64,000 nucleotides of DNA from Solirubrobacterales bacterium (GCA_027451345.1 DAIDJO010000073.1:1-64000); one strand, 5' to 3'; positions 42,892 through 51,923 are shown, numbered from the stretch's first letter. Notes: generated by a model not told the origin, from the sequence alone. Program-made: numbers and translations.

Positions 42892-45009
42892 TCAGAGGCT
42901 GACCTGCGAGCCCATCAGCACGGTGCGTTCGACCGGCAGGCCGAAGTGCTCGATCGGGCTGGCGGCGTTGCGCGCCATCAGCAGGAACAGCTTCTTGCGC
43001 CAGCGCGCCATCTCGCGGGTGTTGCTCTCGGTGATCGTCATGCGCGAGATGAAGTACGAGGCGCCCTCGAGGTCGAGGTTGCGCTCGAGGTAGCCGAGTT
43101 TGCGCGCGAGCTGCAGGAGCACCGGGATGCTGGTCGTGTCCCGGTATCCGCTGCGCACGACGACGTGCAGAACCGGGCAGCGGCCGGGGCCGATGCGTTT
43201 GACCGAGAAGAGGCGGTCGCGCGGCACGTGCGGGACGCTGCGCGAGACGATCGAGACGATCAGCAGCCGATCGGGCACCGAGTGGGTGTGTTCCACGAGG
43301 CTGCGCAGGGCGAGCGGGGTGGTGGAGCCGGTCGGATTGAGGAACACGGCCGTCCCGGGCACCCGGACGATCGCGGGCCGGGCGCCCGCGAGCGCCTCCA
43401 GGAAGGCGTCGAGGTCACCCTCCTGCTCGATCCGGTTGCGGCTGACGATCACCTGTCCGCTGCGCCACGTCAGCATCACGGCCGAGCAGGCCAGGCCGAC
43501 GGCGAGTGGCAGCCACGCCCCATGGAAGAGCTTGGCGATGTTGGCCAGGAAGAACGCGAGCTCGACGGTGAGGAAGAGGGCGCCGAGCAGCGCCAGGCGC
43601 CACCGCGGCGTGTGCCACATCGCCCGGGCCACCGACAGGAACAGGACCGTGTTGAGGACGAAGGTGCCCGTCACGGCCACGCCGTAGGCGTTGGCCAGGC
43701 CGTTGGAATTCCGGAAGATCAGGACGAGCGCGAGCACCCCCGCGCCGAGGATCCAGTTGATGATCGGGACGTAGATCTGACCCTCCATCTCGCTCGTGTG
43801 CACGACCTTCAGGCGCGGGAGGTAGCCGAGCTGCATCGCCTGCCGGGCGACGGTGTAGGAGCCGGAGATCACCGCCTGGGAGGCGATCACGGTCGCGGCG
43901 GTGGCGAGCACCACCTCGGGCAGCTGAAACCAGCTCGGGACGACGGAGAAGAACGGGTTGAACGTGCTGTAGTGCCCGGGCGCCGCGGCGTGCGGATGAT
44001 CGAGGATCCACGCCGCCTGTCCCATGTAGTTGAGCATCACGGCGGGCCAGACGACGGCGAACCACGCCAGGCGGATCGGCGCGGGTCCGAAGTGCCCGCG
44101 GTCGGCGTAGAGCGCCTCGGCGCCGGTGACGCAGAGGACGACGCCGCCGAGCGTGAGGAAGGCCTCGAACCCGTGGTCGAGGAAGAAGCGCGCCCCCCAC
44201 GTGGGCGAGAGGGCCTGGAGCACGCCGGGGTGCGAGACCACCTCGGGCAGGCCGATCGCCGCGATCGAGGCGAACCAGACGAGTGTCACGGGCCCGAACA
44301 GCCAGCCCACGGTGCCGGTGCCGCGGCGCTGGATGGCGAACAGGCCGACGAGGATAACGATCGAGATGGGCACGATCAGATGGGTCACTCCCGGGGTCGC
44401 CACCGACAGGCCCGACACGGCCGAGAGCACCGAGATGGCCGGCGTGATCATGCCGTCGCCGAAGAACAGCGAGGCGCCGAAGATGCCGAGTGTGACGAGC
44501 AGCGTGGCGTGGGCCACCCGGTTGCGGCGCACGAGCGCGGCGAGCGCCATGATCCCGCCGTCACCGCGGTTGTGCGCGCGCATGATGAACCCGGCGTACT
44601 TCACCGAGACGACGATCGCCAGCGACCAGAAGATGAGCGAGACGATCCCGTAGACCCCGACCGGCGTGATGTGCCGGGTCGCATGGAAGCCGAACGTCAC
44701 CTGCTCGGCGTAGAGCGGGCTCGTCCCGATGTCCCCGTAGACGACGCCGAGCGCGCCGAGGGCGAGCACCGCCCGGCCCGCGTGGGCGACGACGTCGTGC
44801 TGGGCCTCCTCCTCGTCGGTGGGCTCCGAGGCCTCGTCGGCGTCGTGATCCTCGGCCTCCCAGCGGCTGGGGCGGCTCTGCGGCATCTTGTGCGCCGCCT
44901 CGTGGTAGCTGCGCCGGCGGGTGGGGTCCGGCTCGGCGGTGGCGGATGGGGCGGCCGCCCTCGATGAGGGATCGCCCTGGTCAGGGCGGTTCGGAGTCGA
45001 GCCGGCCAT
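42892..45009 (-). CDS. kup: Kup-family potassium transporter
   Basis: The 705-aa protein has a 70-residue acidic cytoplasmic N-terminus, then about 12 membrane helices. It starts the membrane part with LALGALGVVYGDIGTSPLYA, the Kup signature, and has KYAGFIMRAHNRGDGGIMAL and GSYTVARQAMQLGYLPRL. A cytoplasmic C-terminal domain of about 150 residues follows. Kup proteins bring in K+ with protons. The N-terminus is longer than in E. coli Kup, and the true start may be the internal methionine of KMPQSRPSR. Confidence 0.95.
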   Translation of the reverse strand: MAGSTPNRPDQGDPSSRAAAPSATAEPDPTRRRSYHEAAHKMPQSRPSRWEAEDHDADEASEPTDEEEAQHDVVAHAGRAVLALGALGVVYGDIGTSPLYAEQVTFGFHATRHITPVGVYGIVSLIFWSLAIVVSVKYAGFIMRAHNRGDGGIMALAALVRRNRVAHATLLVTLGIFGASLFFGDGMITPAISVLSAVSGLSVATPGVTHLIVPISIVILVGLFAIQRRGTGTVGWLFGPVTLVWFASIAAIGLPEVVSHPGVLQALSPTWGARFFLDHGFEAFLTLGGVVLCVTGAEALYADRGHFGPAPIRLAWFAVVWPAVMLNYMGQAAWILDHPHAAAPGHYSTFNPFFSVVPSWFQLPEVVLATAATVIASQAVISGSYTVARQAMQLGYLPRLKVVHTSEMEGQIYVPIINWILGAGVLALVLIFRNSNGLANAYGVAVTGTFVLNTVLFLSVARAMWHTPRWRLALLGALFLTVELAFFLANIAKLFHGAWLPLAVGLACSAVMLTWRSGQVIVSRNRIEQEGDLDAFLEALAGARPAIVRVPGTAVFLNPTGSTTPLALRSLVEHTHSVPDRLLIVSIVSRSVPHVPRDRLFSVKRIGPGRCPVLHVVVRSGYRDTTSIPVLLQLARKLGYLERNLDLEGASYFISRMTITESNTREMARWRKKLFLLMARNAASPIEHFGLPVERTVLMGSQVSL

Positions 45010-45107
45010 TGATGCAGAGCTTATGCCTCCGCGTGCGTGGGCGACGCTCGGCGCGCCGTCGGGACGGCCGTGCAGGAATGCGCGGCGAGGGGGCGAAAGC
45101 CGGACCC

Positions 45108-45665
45108 ATGCTGCTACGTCACCGCGCCCCGACCATCGACAACACGTCCGTCCGGGCCGCGGAGGGCTTCGAGCACGTCCCGGCCTCCTCGATCGCGGTC
45201 ATCCGCTGGCTCACCGCGGCCGGCGTCGACTTCGTCCTGGTCGGCGCCGTGGCTCGAGCCATCCGCGGCGAGTCCCACGCCCGTGGTCCCGTCGACGTGG
45301 TGCCCGCGCCGTACGGGCGCAACCTCGACCGTCTCGCCCTCGCCCTCACCGCCGTGCGGGCGTGCCGGCGCTCACCCGGCGAGCTGATCGGCGCGGCGCC
45401 CATCACCTCGACCGCGGCCCTGAAGCTGACGGCGGAGATGCTCGTGGGCACGGAGCGCTGGGAGCTCCGCTGCGGTGAGCACGACCTGGACATCGAGGGG
45501 CGGCCCCCGGGGTCACCGAGCTACCAGGAGCTGCTTTACGAGGCGGTCCGCTTCCGTGTCTCACCCGAGGTGTCGGTCGAGGTCGCCGCGCCCGAGGACA
45601 TCGAGCATTACGACCACGTGCGGCGCACCGGTCTCTCCCCGGAGATCACCGTCACCCGCCTCTGA
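45108..45665 (+). CDS. Nucleotidyltransferase-fold protein (degenerate)
   Basis: From ATG 45108 the product is 185 aa. The sequence IRWLTAAGVDFVLVGAVARAIRGE resembles MNT-type nucleotidyltransferases (VLVGG-x-A), but the D-x-D pair is reduced to PVDVVPAPYG. A later block reads RCGEHDLDIEGRPPG. It may be an antitoxin- or sensor-type relative without activity. The frame extends upstream to 44946, overlapping kup, without support. It converges on the adenosyltransferase gene. Confidence 0.6.
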   Translation: MLLRHRAPTIDNTSVRAAEGFEHVPASSIAVIRWLTAAGVDFVLVGAVARAIRGESHARGPVDVVPAPYGRNLDRLALALTAVRACRRSPGELIGAAPITSTAALKLTAEMLVGTERWELRCGEHDLDIEGRPPGSPSYQELLYEAVRFRVSPEVSVEVAAPEDIEHYDHVRRTGLSPEITVTRL

Positions 45666-45669
45666 GCCG

Positions 45670-45715
45670 GCGCCCGGGCGATCGGCCGCCGCGCGGTCGA
45701 TCAGCCGCCGGGCGC
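45670..45715. terminator. Nested hairpin between convergent genes
   Basis: GCGCCCGG (45670-45677) pairs with CCGGGCGC (45708-45715). Inside it GATCG and CGATC also pair. It spans the short gap between the nucleotidyltransferase-like gene and the end of the adenosyltransferase gene, overlapping the last codons of the latter. It may serve both strands. No T-run. Confidence 0.4.
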
Positions 45716-46273
45716 GTCCGCGTCGCGAAAGCGGCCGGGCTGCCACAGCGGCTCATCGCCGGCGTTGGCGCCGCGCGCGAGGATGAAGAGCAGGTCCGAG
45801 AGGCGGTTCAGGTAGCGGACCACCTCCGGGCTCACCGCCTCGCCGCAGCCCACGGCCAGCCGCTCCGCCCGCCGGCAGATCGTGCGGGCGACGTGCAGAC
45901 GGGCCGCGGCGGCGGAGCCGCCCGGCAGCACGAACGATCGCAGCGGCGGCAGCGTCGCGTTGACCTCGTCGCAGCGTCGCTCGAGCCACTCGGTCTGCGC
46001 CGGCAGGACCCGGAGGCGTTCCCGCTGCGGGTCCTCGGGCGCGGCGATGTCGGCGCCGACGTCGAAGAGGTCGTTCTGCACGCGCTGGAGCCACTCCCGG
46101 TAGGCGTCGGGCAGCCCGGCCTCGGCGAGCACCAGGCCGATCCACGAGTTCAGCTCATCGACCGTCCCGTACGCCTCGATGCGGGGGTGGGTCTTGGCCA
46201 CGCGGCTCATGTCGCCGAGATGGGTCTCGCCGCCGTCGCCGAGCTTCGTGTAGATGCGCGTCAGGTTCACCAT
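45701..46273 (-). CDS. mmaB: Cob(I)alamin adenosyltransferase (PduO type)
   Basis: The 190-aa helical protein has RIYTKLGDGGETHLGDMSRV, then EAYGTVDELNSWIG, RSFVLPGGSAAAARLHVART and RYLNRLSDLLFILAR. These are the ATP- and corrinoid-binding motifs of PduO/MmaB enzymes, which attach the 5'-deoxyadenosyl group to cobalamin. It is divergent to the cobalamin-riboswitch operon, which supports a B12-handling locus. Confidence 0.95.
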   Translation of the reverse strand: MVNLTRIYTKLGDGGETHLGDMSRVAKTHPRIEAYGTVDELNSWIGLVLAEAGLPDAYREWLQRVQNDLFDVGADIAAPEDPQRERLRVLPAQTEWLERRCDEVNATLPPLRSFVLPGGSAAAARLHVARTICRRAERLAVGCGEAVSPEVVRYLNRLSDLLFILARGANAGDEPLWQPGRFRDADAPGG

Positions 46274-46370: not shown

Positions 46371-46517
46371 GGTCGGCAGCGATGGGAAGCCGGTGAGAAT
46401 CCGGAGCGGACCCGCCACTGTGATCGGGGAGGACGGCGAAGAGCACGCCACTGGCGCCGACGAGGCGCTGGGAAGGCATCGCCGTTGGGCCCGACAGCCA
46501 GGAGACCACCTCCGACC
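46371..46517 (+). ncRNA. Cobalamin riboswitch
   Basis: The region holds the conserved core GATGGGAAGCCGGTGAGAAT followed by CCGCCACTGTGAT, then GCCACTGG and a B12 box CAGCCAGGAGACCACC (46494-46509). The outer stem is GGTCGG (46371-46376) with CCGACC (46512-46517). Such RNAs bind adenosylcobalamin and repress the genes they precede. The first ATG is 34 nt after the outer stem, so control could be at translation or transcription. Exact ends are estimates. Confidence 0.93.
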
Positions 46518-46551
46518 AGAAAGCCGAAGCCCTCGTGGAAAGGGGTGGCTC

Positions 46552-47007
46552 ATGCAGATCAAGCACGCAATCACGGCCGGCGCGGCAGCGCTCGGCACCA
46601 CCGCGGCGTTCGCCGCAGCGCAGGCGGCGGTGGCCGCCACGGCGCATCCGGCCGCCGTGGCCGGTCCCAGGGTGACGATCACCGTCCGGGGCAGGCAGGG
46701 CACGCTGCTCGCAACACGGCCCGTCCGGGGCCGCTCGGGGTGGATCACCCGGGGCGGGGCCCCGAAGGGCAAGTGCCCGGCCGACAGCGTGCAGGGCGCG
46801 CTGAACGTGGCGACGCGTGGCCACTGGAAGGGCACGTGGTACGCGAGCTACCACGAGTACTACATCACCTCGATCCTCGGCGACAGCGAGACGACGAAGA
46901 AGGCGTACTGGGGCCTCTATGTCAACGGCAAGCTGGCGTCGAAGGGCGCCTGCGACATCCCGCTGCGGGCCGGTGATCGCCTGCTCTTCAAGGTGACGCG
47001 GTCCTGA
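46552..47007 (+). CDS. Secreted DUF4430 protein
   Basis: From ATG 46552 the product is 151 aa, with a signal peptide (AITAGAAALGTTAAFAAAQA) and a mature region like DUF4430: VTITVRGRQGTLLATRPVRG, YHEYYITSILGDSETTKKAY, WGLYVNGKLASKGACDIPLR and AGDRLLFKVTRS. DUF4430 is the small beta-domain that also forms the C-terminus of transcobalamin and intrinsic factor. Ribosome binding is at AAAGGGG. It is the first gene after the riboswitch, and its TGA overlaps the next ATG. A direct corrinoid role is inferred. Confidence 0.83.
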   Translation: MQIKHAITAGAAALGTTAAFAAAQAAVAATAHPAAVAGPRVTITVRGRQGTLLATRPVRGRSGWITRGGAPKGKCPADSVQGALNVATRGHWKGTWYASYHEYYITSILGDSETTKKAYWGLYVNGKLASKGACDIPLRAGDRLLFKVTRS

Positions 47008-47942
47008 TGCCTCGCCGCACCCGCCCTGTCGCGCTGCTCGCCGCCATGGTCGCGGCCGCGGTGCTGCTCGGCGGGTGCGGCATCGGGGGCGGCCCGGGCA
47101 CGCGGAACGCCCAGCTGCTCGTCACCGCCGACTTCGGCACGCGGCAGTACGGGAGCGCCGTGGAGCGTCGCGTGCCGGGCTCCGAGACCGTCCTCTCGCT
47201 GCTCGAGCGCCACTTCAGGGTCTCGACCCGCTACGGCGGCGGTTTCGTCGAGTCGATCGCCGGACACTCCGGCAGCTCCGACCATCGCGACTGGTTCTAC
47301 TACGTCAACGGGATCGAGGCGGCGGACGGCGCCGGCGTCACGGACGTGCACGCCGGCGACCACGTCTGGTGGGACCTGCACGACTGGACGGCGACCGACT
47401 CGATCCCGGCCGTCGTCGGCTCCTATCCCGAGCCGTTCACGAGTGGCCTCGGCGGACGCCGGTTCCCGACCCTGCTCGATTGCGGCTCCGGCACCCAGAC
47501 GGCGTGCGACGAGGTGGGCGTCGCGCTGCGCCGCCAGGGCGTCAAGGCGGCCGATCAGTCACTCGGCACCGGCTCGGGCTCGGAGTCGCTCTCGGTCGTG
47601 ATCGGCGTCTGGAGCCAGATCAGGGCGGTGATCGCCGCCGAGCTGATCGCCGCCGGGCCACGCAGCAGCGGTGTGTACGCGCAGTTCGTCGATCACGGCA
47701 CCGCGCTGGCGCTCGAGAACCCGCGCGGCCGTGTCGTCCGCACGCTGCACGGGAGCGTCGGCCTGATCGCCGCGACGGGCCAGCCCTCGATCGGCCAGCC
47801 GATCTGGTTTGTCACCGGCACGGATCCCGCGGGCGTCCTCGCGGCGGCGCACGCGTTCACCGTCGCGAAGCTCGCGCACCATTTCGCGGTGGCCGTGTCC
47901 GGGGGCTCGGTCATCCCGGTCCCCGTCGCGCCCGGCACATGA
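47007..47942 (+). CDS. DUF4430 lipoprotein
   Basis: The 311-aa protein begins with a lipoprotein signal, LLAAMVAAAVLLGGC, Cys 24. Residues 33-130 form a DUF4430 domain: LLVTADFGTRQYGSAVERRV, ETVLSLLERHFRVSTRYGGG, DWFYYVNGIEAADGAG and AGDHVWWDLHDW. The last 170 residues are a second domain with no recognised family (VVIGVWSQIRAVIAAELIAA). It would be anchored outside the membrane and could present corrinoid to the transporter. It overlaps both neighbours. Confidence 0.83.
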   Translation: MPRRTRPVALLAAMVAAAVLLGGCGIGGGPGTRNAQLLVTADFGTRQYGSAVERRVPGSETVLSLLERHFRVSTRYGGGFVESIAGHSGSSDHRDWFYYVNGIEAADGAGVTDVHAGDHVWWDLHDWTATDSIPAVVGSYPEPFTSGLGGRRFPTLLDCGSGTQTACDEVGVALRRQGVKAADQSLGTGSGSESLSVVIGVWSQIRAVIAAELIAAGPRSSGVYAQFVDHGTALALENPRGRVVRTLHGSVGLIAATGQPSIGQPIWFVTGTDPAGVLAAAHAFTVAKLAHHFAVAVSGGSVIPVPVAPGT

Positions 47943-48817
47943 TCTACCGGCGCCGGGCCAGTCCGCTGCACGCGGCCCGGGCCGCGGTGGCGATCGCCTG
48001 GTGCGCGGCGCTCGGCGTGGCGTCGATGCTCGAGTCCAATCCGGTGCTCCTGGGCGCCACCGCCGTCACGGTGCTCGGCGCCGCCGCGCTCGCCGGCGTC
48101 GGCCGCGAGCTGCGCCGCAGCCTGCGCTGGTCGGTCCCGCTCTGGCTCGGCATCGCGCTCGTCAACGCGCTCGTCACCCGCAACGGCCTCACGGTGATCT
48201 GGCGGTTCGGCGACCTGCCGCTGCTCGGCCAGACGAACGTGACGCTCGAGGCGACCGTCTACGGGGCGCTGCTCGGGCTGCGCGCCGTCGTCCTCATCCA
48301 GATCGGCACGCTCTACTCGGTCGCCGTCGACCCCGACGCGGTCCTGCGCCTGTTCCGCGGGCTCTCCTTCCGCTCGGCGCTCTCGGCCACGATCGCCACC
48401 CGCATGGTCCCGGTGCTCGTCCGCGACTCCCGCCGCCTCGCCGAGGCCCAGCGCTGCCGCCCCGGCGACCCGCCCGGCCGCGCCCAGCTGCTGCGGGCCA
48501 CGACGGCGAGCGTGATCGACCGTGCGCTCGACGTCGCCGCGACGCTCGAGGTCCGCGGCTACGGTGCCGCCCGCCGCGCCCCCCGTCGCCGCGACTCGAT
48601 CTGGGAGCGTGGCTGGTCCCGGCATGACCTCGCCTTCCTGGCCTCGGCGGGCGGCCTCCTCGTGATCGTGCTCGCCGCCCGGCTGGGGGGCTGGGACGCC
48701 TTCACGGCGTATCCGCTGTTGCGCGCGCCCGCTGGCGCGCGCACGCTCGGCGCGGCCGGCGCTCTGCTCCTCGTCGCACTGCTGCCGTTCCTCGACCGCC
48801 GGGGGATCGAGGCGTGA
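47939..48817 (+). CDS. ecfT: ECF transporter T component (EcfT)
   Basis: From ATG 47939 the product is 292 aa with about six membrane helices. It has the EcfT/CbiQ pattern and the two Ala-Arg-Gly-like coupling helices near RALDVAATLEVRGYGAARRA. The central domain includes TRMVPVLVRDSRRLAEAQRC. EcfT links the ATPases to the substrate-binding S component. ATGA overlaps couple it to both neighbouring genes. Confidence 0.9.
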   Translation: MIYRRRASPLHAARAAVAIAWCAALGVASMLESNPVLLGATAVTVLGAAALAGVGRELRRSLRWSVPLWLGIALVNALVTRNGLTVIWRFGDLPLLGQTNVTLEATVYGALLGLRAVVLIQIGTLYSVAVDPDAVLRLFRGLSFRSALSATIATRMVPVLVRDSRRLAEAQRCRPGDPPGRAQLLRATTASVIDRALDVAATLEVRGYGAARRAPRRRDSIWERGWSRHDLAFLASAGGLLVIVLAARLGGWDAFTAYPLLRAPAGARTLGAAGALLLVALLPFLDRRGIEA

Positions 48818-50457
48818 GCCTCGTGCGGATCACCGATCTGACGTATCGCTTCCCGGGCGCGGCGCGGCCGGCGCTCGAGGCGGTCTCGCTGACGATCGAG
48901 CCGGGGGAGTTCGTGGTGGTGGCCGGGCTCTCCGGTTCGGGCAAGAGCACGCTGCTGTGCGCGGTCAGCGGACTGGTCCCGCACTTCCACGGCGGCACGT
49001 TCGCCGGGAGCGTCGCCGTCGCGGGCCGGGACACCCGCGAGCACGGGCCGGGTGAGCTGGCCGCGAGCGTCGGCTCGCTCTTCCAGGACCCGGAGACCCA
49101 GGTGGTGCTCGGCACGCCGCGCGCCGAGCTCGCCTTCGCCGCCGAGAACCGCGGGTGGTCGGCGCCCGAGGTCGCCCGCGCCGTCGAGGAGACGGCGCTC
49201 GCGCTCGCCATCGACGGGCTGCTCGACCGCCCGGTCGAGGAGCTGAGCGGCGGGGAGCTGCAGCGGGTCGCGCTCGGCGCGACGCTCTCCGCCCGCCCCG
49301 CGCTCGTGTGTCTGGACGAGCCGACCTCACAGCTGGACCCGGTGGCCGGCGACGAGCTGATCGGCCTGCTGCGGCGCCTGAACGAGGACGGCGACACCGC
49401 CGTGCTGCTCGCCGAGCACCGGCTCGAGCGCTGCCTCGGCGCGGCGGACCGCGTGCTCGCCCTCGCCGGGGGGCGGCTCGCCTTCGACGGGCCGCCGGCG
49501 GACTTCCTGGCCTGGGCGCTGACGGCGGCGCCGTCCCTCGTGCCCCCGGGCGCGGCCCTGCTCGCGGGACTCGGGCTCGCGCCCGCCGCCGGGGTCAAGC
49601 GCGCGCGGGCGGCTCTGCGGGCCGCCCGTCTGGCCCCCGCCACGGGCGCGAGCGCCCTCGGGCGGGGCGCTGAGGCCGACGCTCGGGGGGAGCTGGGTCG
49701 TTGGGACGCGATTCTCCCGCGGCGTCGGGGTGGCCGCTGCGCATCGCAGGCCGCGCTCGAGCTGCGCGGCGTCTGGCATGAGATCGCGGGCGGCGCGGCG
49801 ATCCTCCGCGGCGTCGACCTCAGGCTCCGGGCCGGTGAGCGCGTCGCGCTGATGGGCCGCAACGGCGCGGGCAAGTCGACGCTGCTGCGCCATGCCGCCG
49901 GGCTGATGGCGCCGACCCGCGGGCGGGTCCAGGCGGCGGGCCGGGTCGCGCTGCTCCTGCAGCACCCGGGGGACTACCTCGTGCACGAGACGGTGGGGGA
50001 GGAGGCGGGGGAGCGCGCGCTCGCCACGGTCGGGCTCGGGCAGCTCGCCGGTCGCCACCCGCGCGACCTGAGCGGGGGGGAGCGGCAGCGCCTCGCCCTT
50101 GCCATCGTGCTCGGGGAGCCCGACGGGGCGGCGCCGGCGGCGGTGGTCTGCCTCGACGAGCCGACCCGCGGCATGGACCGGGCGGCGAAGGATGCGCTCG
50201 CGCGCCTGCTCGACGGGCTGCCGGCCGCGGTGCTCGTCGCCACCCACGACCCGGAGTTCGCCGCCGCGTTCGCGCAGCGCGTCGTCCTGCTCGCGGACGG
50301 CCGGGTGATCGCGGACGGCGCCACGGCGGAGGTCCTCTGTGGCGGGACGTACTTCGCCACCGAGACGGCCCGCATCCTCGGCGGGGCCGGCGGGGCCCTG
50401 TTGCCGGCGGACGGTGTCGCGCTGCTCGGCCGCGAGCCGGCGGGGCTGCGGGCGTGA
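48814..50457 (+). CDS. ecfA: ECF transporter double ATPase (fused EcfA-EcfA')
   Basis: The 547-aa protein contains two ABC domains. The first has GLSGSGKSTLL, signature LSGGELQRVALG, Walker B LVCLDEPTSQLD and H-loop LAEHRLE. The second, after a 60-residue low-complexity linker, has GRNGAGKSTLLR, LSGGERQRLALA, VVCLDEPTRGMD and VATHDPE. All key residues are present in both, so each half should be active. The two halves are usually separate proteins in ECF systems. Confidence 0.94.
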   Translation: MSLVRITDLTYRFPGAARPALEAVSLTIEPGEFVVVAGLSGSGKSTLLCAVSGLVPHFHGGTFAGSVAVAGRDTREHGPGELAASVGSLFQDPETQVVLGTPRAELAFAAENRGWSAPEVARAVEETALALAIDGLLDRPVEELSGGELQRVALGATLSARPALVCLDEPTSQLDPVAGDELIGLLRRLNEDGDTAVLLAEHRLERCLGAADRVLALAGGRLAFDGPPADFLAWALTAAPSLVPPGAALLAGLGLAPAAGVKRARAALRAARLAPATGASALGRGAEADARGELGRWDAILPRRRGGRCASQAALELRGVWHEIAGGAAILRGVDLRLRAGERVALMGRNGAGKSTLLRHAAGLMAPTRGRVQAAGRVALLLQHPGDYLVHETVGEEAGERALATVGLGQLAGRHPRDLSGGERQRLALAIVLGEPDGAAPAAVVCLDEPTRGMDRAAKDALARLLDGLPAAVLVATHDPEFAAAFAQRVVLLADGRVIADGATAEVLCGGTYFATETARILGGAGGALLPADGVALLGREPAGLRA

Positions 50458-51923
50458 GCTGGCCGCTCGCCGCCTTCACGGTGCTCGGGCTCGGCCTGCT
50501 CGCCGGGTTCGCCTGGTATGAGCGCACCCGCCCGGACGCCCGGATCGTCGCGCTCGTCGGGACCCTCGCGGCGTTCGCCGCGCTCGGGCGGATCGCCTTC
50601 GCCGCGGTGCCGAACGTGAAGCCGACCAGTGACATCGTGCTGATCTCGGGCTTCGCCCTCGGGGGGGCGCCCGGCTATGTCGTCGGCGCCGTCGCGGCGC
50701 TCACCTCGAACGTCTTCTTCGGGCAGGGTCCCTGGACCCCGTGGCAGATGGCCGGCTGGGGGCTCACCGGGCTGGCCGGCGCGCTGCTCGGGCGCCTCAC
50801 CCGCGGCCGCATCGGGCGCCTGCCGCTCGCCCTGGTGAGCTTCGTGCTCGGCTTCGCCTTCACCGCGCTGCAGGATTGCGGGGACTGGGTCACCTACAGC
50901 GATCACAGCCTCGCCCAGCTCGGCGTCTACGTCGGCCGCGGGGTCGGGTTCGATTTCGTCCATGCCGCCGGCTGCTTCGGCTTCGCGATGGCCTTCGGTC
51001 CCGCGCTGATCCGGACGCTCGCCCGCTTCCGCACCCGCATCCAGGTGCGGTGGCTGCCCGCCCCGGGCGCCTGCGCCCTGCTCGTGACGGGACTGCTCGT
51101 CAGCGTGGCCGCGCTCCGGCCGGCCCGGGCGCTCGCCCACCCGCGCCGATCCCCGGTCGCCTTTCTGCGCGGCGCCCAGAACCGCGACGGCGGCTTCGGC
51201 CCGGCGCCGGGACAGCCGTCGGACCCGATGGTGAGCGGCTGGGCGACGTTGGCGCTCGCCGACGCGGGCGACCGGTCGCCCGCCGCCGTCCGCTACGTCC
51301 TGCGGGTGCAGCGGCCCGGCGACCGCAACCCCGGGGATCTCGAGCGGACGCTCCTGGCCGCCGGCCCGGCCGCGGGCCCGGCGCTGCGCCGCGCGCTGCG
51401 CGCGCTCGTCCACCGCGACGGTGACGTCGCCGGCCAGACGAACCTCACCGCCTTCGCCATCCTTGCCCTGCGGGCCGCCCGGATGCCGGTGGCCCCCGCG
51501 ATGTACCGCTGGCTCGCCCGCCAGCAGGACCGTGACGGCGGCTTCAACTACGCCACCCGCGGCGGGGTGAGCGACGCCGACGACACCGGGGCGGCGCTCG
51601 CCGCGCTCGCCGGTGTCGCCCCGCAAGGGGTCGTCCGGCGCGCCGTGGCGTACCTGCGCGCGGATCAGAACCGCGACGGCGGCTTCCCGGCCACGCCGGG
51701 CGCCGGCTCAAACGCCCAGTCGACGGCGTTCGCCGTCTGCGGGCTGATCGCCGCGCGGGTGGCGCCGGGGACGGTGCGCCGGCGGGGCGGCGCGACGCCG
51801 CTCGCGTACCTGCGCTCGCTCGTGCAACCGGACGGCGCCGTCGATTACGCTCGCGCGAACCCGCAGACCCCGGTGTGGGTCACTGCGGAGGCCGAGATCG
51901 CGCTGTCCGGCCAGACTCTGTGA
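50454..51923 (+). CDS. ECF S-component fused to an alpha/alpha-barrel repeat domain
   Basis: The 489-aa protein has a membrane part (about 1-200, six helices: GRIAFAAVPNVKPTSDIVLI and FALGGAPGYVVGAVAALTSN) like an ECF substrate-binding S component. After a seventh helix (CALLVTGLLVSVAALRPA), residues 230-489 hold six repeats: FLRGAQNRDGGFGPAPG, LARQQDRDGGFNYATRGG, LRADQNRDGGFPATPGAG, LRSLVQPDGAVDYARANP and two weaker ones. The Q-x-x-DGGF pattern is that of alpha/alpha-barrel terpene cyclase/prenyltransferase folds and of the N-domain of transcobalamin and intrinsic factor. This domain should face outside. Substrate inferred as a corrinoid. Confidence 0.85.
   Translation: MSWPLAAFTVLGLGLLAGFAWYERTRPDARIVALVGTLAAFAALGRIAFAAVPNVKPTSDIVLISGFALGGAPGYVVGAVAALTSNVFFGQGPWTPWQMAGWGLTGLAGALLGRLTRGRIGRLPLALVSFVLGFAFTALQDCGDWVTYSDHSLAQLGVYVGRGVGFDFVHAAGCFGFAMAFGPALIRTLARFRTRIQVRWLPAPGACALLVTGLLVSVAALRPARALAHPRRSPVAFLRGAQNRDGGFGPAPGQPSDPMVSGWATLALADAGDRSPAAVRYVLRVQRPGDRNPGDLERTLLAAGPAAGPALRRALRALVHRDGDVAGQTNLTAFAILALRAARMPVAPAMYRWLARQQDRDGGFNYATRGGVSDADDTGAALAALAGVAPQGVVRRAVAYLRADQNRDGGFPATPGAGSNAQSTAFAVCGLIAARVAPGTVRRRGGATPLAYLRSLVQPDGAVDYARANPQTPVWVTAEAEIALSGQTL

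What the first reader, a model, noticed from the sequence alone, without database searches (positions are those of the whole stretch)
46371..51923. A cobalamin-riboswitch operon that encodes both halves of an intrinsic-factor-like B12 binder together with an ECF transporter
Seen: a cobalamin riboswitch, then two exported DUF4430 proteins, EcfT, a double EcfA and an S-component carrying six DGGF-type alpha/alpha-barrel repeats outside the membrane. All five genes overlap by 1 to 4 nt. Known: vertebrate intrinsic factor and transcobalamin consist of an alpha/alpha barrel plus a C-terminal DUF4430-like beta-domain that close around B12. Inference: here the two folds are split between separate parts of one transporter, which would capture corrinoid outside the cell and hand it to the S-component. 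The adjacent adenosyltransferase gene supports B12 as cargo. Cobalt is the main alternative, since cobalamin riboswitches also control cobalt transporters.
Basis: partly seen in the sequence, partly recalled or inferred. Interest (0 to 1): 0.93.

Follow-up and report, generated by a model that had tools for sequence, protein, structure and literature searches.

The report
B12 importer with intrinsic-factor-like outer parts
A bacterium that probably cannot make vitamin B12 carries a B12-controlled import system whose outside parts look like the two halves of the human B12 carriers (intrinsic factor and transcobalamin), one half tethered to the transporter and the other made as separate exported proteins.

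Summary
In detail: a cobalamin riboswitch precedes five overlapping genes (two exported DUF4430 proteins, EcfT, a double EcfA, and an S-component fused to an alpha/alpha barrel). B12, not cobalt, is the likely cargo. The S-component is related to CbrT, the proven B12 S-component (PDB 6FNP, E 2e-10 alone, 2e-26 as profile). In the 85%-complete genome I found no CbiC, CobS, CbiM, BtuC-type permease or MetE, but did find MetH, and this is its only B12 riboswitch. The operon occurs in 28/31 related genomes without CbiC and 4/10 with it. DUF4430's best solved match is haptocorrin, with intrinsic factor and transcobalamin close behind. In Bacillota the same operon encodes barrel and DUF4430 in one chain; a model of one has B12 carriers as its top 14 Foldseek hits, though its domains are not closed as in them. 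In sister lineages the barrel is a separate secreted protein, so the tether here is probably a former signal peptide. The general idea was published in 2007 (Burroughs et al.); the CbrT link, the S-barrel fusion and the comparative evidence appear new. B12 binding and hand-off by the outer parts are untested.

The parts
46383..46508 (+). cobalamin riboswitch aptamer (RF00174), the only one found in this genome
   Evidence: cmscan 73.4 bits, E 3.3e-16; only match in G000
46552..47007 (+). D1: secreted DUF4430 (transcobalamin C-terminal-like) protein, 151 aa, signal peptide, no lipobox
   Evidence: Pfam PF14478 3.9e-12; translation
47007..47942 (+). D2: DUF4430 lipoprotein, 311 aa, with a conserved C-terminal domain (about residues 145-305) of no known family
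   Evidence: Pfam PF14478 8.7e-13; lipobox cysteine C24 nearly invariant in 36 homologues
47939..48817 (+). EcfT (CbiQ family)
   Evidence: PF02361 3.2e-13; ATGA overlap with D2
48814..50457 (+). EcfA-EcfA', two ATPase domains in one chain
   Evidence: PF00005 two stretches, 1.4e-43; TIGR04520/TIGR04521 best NCBIfam matches, below their cut-offs
50454..51050 (+). CbrT-like S-component domain, residues 1-199, six predicted membrane segments
   Evidence: PDB 6FNP chain A: 2.1e-10 single sequence, 1.9e-26 profile; helices in model
51060..51137 (+). seventh hydrophobic segment and linker (residues 203-228, ends ARALA), probably a former signal peptide, now a tether or a cleavage site
   Evidence: hydropathy and positive charge before it; separate secreted barrel genes in sister lineages
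51138..51923 (+). extracellular alpha/alpha barrel (residues 229-489)
   Evidence: PF00432 1.6e-8; model pLDDT mostly above 90; VIA Z 23.7, rmsd 2.8 over 243 residues to squalene-hopene cyclase
45701..46273 (-). PduO-type cob(I)alamin adenosyltransferase, divergent neighbour
   Evidence: PF01923 2.3e-63, TIGR00636 over cut-off

Best explanation
This is a dedicated (group I) ECF importer for cobalamin, switched off by a cobalamin riboswitch when B12 is plentiful. A CbrT-type S-component with EcfT and a double EcfA moves the vitamin across the membrane. Outside the membrane, an alpha/alpha barrel tethered to the S-component and one or both DUF4430 proteins (secreted D1, lipoprotein D2) act as the two halves of a transcobalamin/intrinsic-factor-like binder that captures corrinoid and delivers it to the S-component. 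PduO then adenosylates it for B12-dependent enzymes. Shown by sequence: parts, gene order, families, riboswitch, apparent auxotrophy. Supported by homology: B12 as cargo (about 0.9), transcobalamin-like nature of the outer domains. Inferred only: the two halves bind B12 jointly and hand it over.
For: Riboswitch, the genome's only one; in 41 genomes it lies 0.6-5.3 kb upstream of S in 25 of 32 cases. The S-component matches CbrT 6FNP, and no other S-component below E 1; ECF-CbrT transport of cobalamin and cobinamide was shown in PMC5997447. Own genome: no CbiC, CobS, CbiM, FecCD over cut-off or MetE; MetH and a B12-binding/MeaB/mutase fusion present. Operon present in 28/31 genomes without CbiC against 4/10 with it, Fisher p 0.003. 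DUF4430 profile: transcobalamin-1 4.6e-7, intrinsic factor 0.0016, transcobalamin-2 0.0023. Barrel and DUF4430 in one chain in 27 of 57 related operons. A combined profile aligns with haptocorrin across both domains (2.9e-8, positions 32-372 of 377). The single-chain model (pLDDT 91.9, pTM 0.80) has transcobalamin, haptocorrin and intrinsic factor as its top 14 Foldseek hits.
Against: No binding data. The single-chain model superposes on the B12 carriers domain by domain only (rmsd about 23 A over both, TM about 0.43). By sequence the barrel profile finds terpene cyclases and prenyltransferases, not transcobalamin, and the window barrel retains a DXDD motif. Some related operons, including archaeal ones, have DUF4430 but no detected barrel (L029, L038, L069, L073, L078), so the barrel is not essential to every version. 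CbrT of L. delbrueckii transports B12 in proteoliposomes without such parts (PMC5997447).
Confidence: 0.66

Rival explanations
1. A B12 importer of the ECF-CbrT type whose outer parts do not form an intrinsic-factor-like pair: D2 alone (or D1) serves as extracellular partner, and the barrel does something else, such as binding a wall polymer or another ligand, or keeping a terpene-cyclase-like activity.
For: The core set found everywhere is DUF4430-T-A-S; the barrel is not detected in 5 of 57 loci where a contig end does not explain it. Nearest barrel relatives by sequence are squalene-hopene and drimenyl diphosphate synthases. The window barrel has DXDD at residues 374-377. The modelled domains are not closed.
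Against: Barrel and DUF4430 occur in one chain in 27 of 57 loci, and the best structural matches of one such chain are the B12 carriers. DXDD is broken in 7 of 18 S-fused barrels, which is not expected of a catalytic motif.
Confidence: 0.24
2. The cargo is an incomplete corrinoid such as cobinamide, which the cell finishes.
For: ECF-CbrT also transports cobinamide (PMC5997447). A few operon-bearing genomes have CobS (3 of 32).
Against: CobS and CbiC were not found in this genome and both are missing in 28 of 32 operon-bearing genomes; those cells could not finish cobinamide by the known route. The genome is only 85% complete.
Confidence: 0.06
3. A cobalt importer under a cobalamin riboswitch.
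For: EcfT falls in the CbiQ family, and cobalamin riboswitches do control some cobalt transporters (PMC2667541).
Against: S is CbrT-like and no CbiM was found. No CbiC, a marker of the corrin ring synthesis that would use cobalt. The operon is rarer in genomes that have CbiC.
Confidence: 0.03

Closest known systems
ECF-CbrT, B12 transporter of Lactobacillus delbrueckii (PDB 6FNP; PMC5997447)
   Same: S-component family, ECF mechanism, adenosyltransferase gene nearby
   Different: Here dedicated T and A genes, a cobalamin riboswitch, exported DUF4430 partners, and an extracellular barrel fused to S
Bacterial transcobalamin-like SLBB proteins in CbiO/CbiQ operons (Burroughs et al. 2007, PMC1796856)
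   Same: DUF4430/SLBB domain, alpha/alpha toroid, CbiQ- and CbiO-like genes, predicted B12 scavenging
   Different: That work described toroid and SLBB fused to each other; here the toroid is fused to the S-component and the SLBB proteins are separate. The sections read do not name the S-component or CbrT
Vertebrate intrinsic factor, haptocorrin and transcobalamin
   Same: alpha/alpha barrel plus DUF4430-type beta-domain
   Different: Animals use one soluble chain and receptor-mediated uptake; here the halves are on different proteins and one is tethered to a transporter
CbiMNQO cobalt ECF transporter
   Same: CbiQ-type EcfT, ECF ATPases, riboswitch control in some cases
   Different: No CbiM; CbrT-type S-component
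SCO2321 family membrane protein (NCBIfam NF053823)
   Same: Partial match of the barrel (88 bits, cut-off 300)
   Different: Below cut-off; the best matched stretch lies in the barrel (residues 334-459)

Membership tests
CbrT-type B12 S-component | sequence homology to characterised CbrT | tested here: met
   6FNP_A 2.1e-10 single sequence, residues 32-195; profile 1.9e-26
CbrT-type B12 S-component | six-helix membrane S-component | tested here: met
   Model helices 3-24, 29-48, 58-89, 95-115, 122-148, 153-196, pLDDT mostly over 85; this half was not fold-searched by itself
CbrT-type B12 S-component | binds and transports cobalamin | not testable with these tools
   needs a transport or binding assay
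Group I ECF transporter | S, T and two ATPase domains encoded together | tested here: met
   T, A and S together in 56 of 57 loci
Transcobalamin / intrinsic factor / haptocorrin | alpha/alpha barrel domain | tested here: met
   window barrel model Z 23.7, rmsd 2.8 over 243 residues to an alpha/alpha barrel enzyme; barrel of the single-chain relative to intrinsic factor Z 20.2, rmsd 3.1 over 235 residues
Transcobalamin / intrinsic factor / haptocorrin | DUF4430-like beta-domain | tested here: met
   profile to transcobalamin-1 4.6e-7, intrinsic factor 0.0016
Transcobalamin / intrinsic factor / haptocorrin | both domains in one chain | tested here: not met
   separate genes in the window; one chain in 27 of 57 related loci
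Transcobalamin / intrinsic factor / haptocorrin | domains closed around B12 | tested here: inconclusive
   ligand-free single-chain model differs in domain orientation, rmsd 22.8 over 323 residues; the window's complex could not be modelled
Cobalamin riboswitch RF00174 | score above gathering cut-off, upstream on the same strand | tested here: met
   73.4 against 31.5 bits
CbiMNQO cobalt transporter | CbiM S-component | tested here: not met
   no PF01891 in the genome or 40 relatives; S is CbrT-like
Class II terpene cyclase | conserved DXDD motif | tested here: inconclusive
   present in the window but broken in 7 of 18 S-fused barrels
Class II terpene cyclase | cyclase activity | not testable with these tools
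   needs an assay

The most novel reading that the evidence does not exclude
An importer with a built-in, two-chain vitamin trap: an intrinsic-factor-type barrel is covalently tethered to an ECF S-component through a former signal peptide, and exported DUF4430 lids close over it, so the S-component carries half of its own external binding protein. ECF transporters are generally described as using the S-component alone to capture substrate.
Probability: 0.42. Interest if true: 0.75.

Novelty: new variant of a known kind. Interest (0 to 1): 0.58.

Why it matters
It links two lines of work that I did not find joined in the papers available: the biochemically proven ECF-CbrT B12 transporter, and the 2007 prediction that animal intrinsic factor and transcobalamin derive from bacterial B12 scavenging proteins. 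If the outer parts bind B12, it would show how the ancestral carrier worked before animals took it over, and it would give an ECF transporter with an external binding protein. It also gives a testable marker for B12 auxotrophy in Thermoleophilia.

Tried and rejected
Cobalt as cargo: no CbiM, no CbiC, S is CbrT-like. Signal peptidase cleavage after TM7: AxA in 21 of 23 homologues against 29 of 138 after other membrane segments, but the linker is alanine-rich and composition-matched shuffles give p 0.07 (AxA) and 0.027 (AxA with a preceding helix breaker), so cleavage is left open. A single-sequence search of a barrel+DUF4430 protein (L057) against PDB found nothing meaningful; profiles were needed. 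Transcobalamin is not among the listed rows for the window S+barrel model, which proves nothing about the fold. D2's C-terminal domain: no Pfam family and no solved relative (an S-layer protein at E 0.22 only). Literature: no experimental study of DUF4430 with ECF transporters found; Rodionov et al. 2009 was not read here, so a prior mention of this gene order there cannot be excluded.

Full report
The riboswitch lies at 46383-46508, and five genes follow with overlaps of 1, 4, 4 and 4 nt. D1 probably begins at ATG 46552, 44 bases after the end of the aptamer; the longer open frame from 46315 overlaps the riboswitch and is unlikely to be the start. D1 has a signal peptide and D2 a lipobox whose cysteine is nearly invariant among 36 homologues. 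Pfam finds DUF4430 in both, CbiQ, two ATPase domains, and a prenyltransferase/squalene-cyclase-type toroid. A PduO-type adenosyltransferase is divergently encoded next door.

Cargo. The membrane half of the S-component gave only weak Pfam hits, but against solved structures its best match is 6FNP chain A, CbrT of Lactobacillus delbrueckii (2.1e-10 alone; 1.9e-26 as profile). ECF-CbrT was shown to carry cobalamin and cobinamide (PMC5997447). The window's genome (85% complete) has one cobalamin riboswitch, this one. In it no CbiC, CbiM, CobS, MetE or FecCD-type permease over cut-off was found. It does have cobalamin-dependent methionine synthase and a B12-binding/MeaB/mutase fusion. Among 41 genomes of the order, the S-component occurs in 28 of 31 without CbiC and in 4 of 10 with it (p 0.003; in high-quality genomes 17 of 18 against 3 of 8, p 0.0045). 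The genomes are related, so these p-values overstate independence. One genome without the operon (G004) has a FecCD gene beside its riboswitch instead. Together this fits import of finished B12 and not of cobalt.

Outer parts. A DUF4430 profile from this operon family finds transcobalamin-1 (haptocorrin), intrinsic factor and transcobalamin-2 among its solved relatives, together with 3U7Z, a bacterial protein of unproven function; the remaining rows are at chance level. The barrel of the window is modelled with high confidence and is an alpha/alpha barrel; its closest solved relatives are squalene-hopene and drimenyl diphosphate synthases. Elsewhere, mainly in Bacillota, the same operon (same T, A and S genes) carries barrel and DUF4430 in one chain (27 of 57 loci). 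A profile over such chains plus single parts aligns with human haptocorrin over nearly its whole length (2.9e-8). A confident model of one, from Cohnella endophytica (L074:1927-3123), has transcobalamin, haptocorrin and intrinsic factor as its first 14 Foldseek matches. However, the two domains are not placed as in the B12-bound carriers: only one domain superposes at a time. Whether this reflects an open, empty state or a real difference cannot be told.

How the fusion arose. In other families of the class the barrel is a separate gene just after the S gene. In the five loci read (L088-L092) it can start within a few bases of the S stop codon, overlapping it, and begins with a hydrophobic, signal-peptide-like stretch. 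In the window and its closer relatives S and barrel are one frame, joined by a seventh hydrophobic segment preceded by a positively charged stretch. The simplest reading is that two overlapping genes fused and the signal peptide became the tether. This also places the barrel outside the cell. Whether the tether is cut is open.

Regulation elsewhere. Rfam finds a cobalamin riboswitch upstream of the operon in 8 of 9 further Thermoleophilia loci scanned (not L004) and in 3 of 8 loci from other groups scanned (L041, L057 with two in tandem, L061). Some of the other five loci may be cut before the promoter.

Mechanism, graded. Shown by sequence: the parts, gene order, riboswitch and apparent auxotrophy. 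Supported by homology: B12 transport by S-T-A-A'; transcobalamin-like outer domains. Inferred: joint capture by barrel and DUF4430, and hand-off to S. D2-type DUF4430 proteins were found even in archaeal operons without a detected barrel (L073, L078), so D2 may be the core partner, and barrel and D1 an added capture layer.

Prior knowledge. Burroughs et al. 2007 (PMC1796856) recognised the transcobalamin C-terminal domain in bacteria, its fusion to alpha/alpha toroids and its operons with CbiO- and CbiQ-like genes, and predicted B12 scavenging. What is added here: the S-component is CbrT-like, the barrel is fused to it in this lineage, sister lineages show the unfused state, and the operon tracks loss of B12 synthesis. 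Limits: the related loci were chosen by similarity to the S-barrel protein, so barrel frequencies are biased upward (DUF4430 frequency is not selected for); the genome is incomplete; no multi-chain structure prediction was possible.

Noticed in passing
window 47007-47942, residues about 145-305: C-terminal domain of D2, conserved from Thermoleophilia to Bacillota and partly in archaea, with no Pfam family or solved relative.
   Followed up: partly
L034:9116-10585, L049:3622-4989: Separate exported barrels end in S-layer homology domains or a copper amine oxidase N-terminal-like domain, which may be surface anchors.
   Followed up: no
L075:3488-6127: One open frame joins two EcfA domains and the S-component (880 aa), another apparent fusion within this transporter family.
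   Followed up: no
L036, L063, L067: Clostridium loci with two S-components and several DUF4430 and barrel genes in one cluster, suggesting duplication or different corrinoids.
   Followed up: no
L007:3153-4721: A contig labelled Chlamydiae carries a Solirubrobacterales-like S-barrel fusion; possibly a mis-binned contig.
   Followed up: no
window 51573-51584 (S protein residues 374-377): The barrel keeps the DXDD motif of class II terpene cyclases; it is intact in 11 of 18 S-fused barrels.
   Followed up: partly
G004:C64:1351-3525: A relative lacking the operon has a FecCD permease gene beside its cobalamin riboswitch, an apparent alternative B12 importer.
   Followed up: no
window 44946-45665: Open frame beside the adenosyltransferase without any Pfam match.
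   Followed up: no
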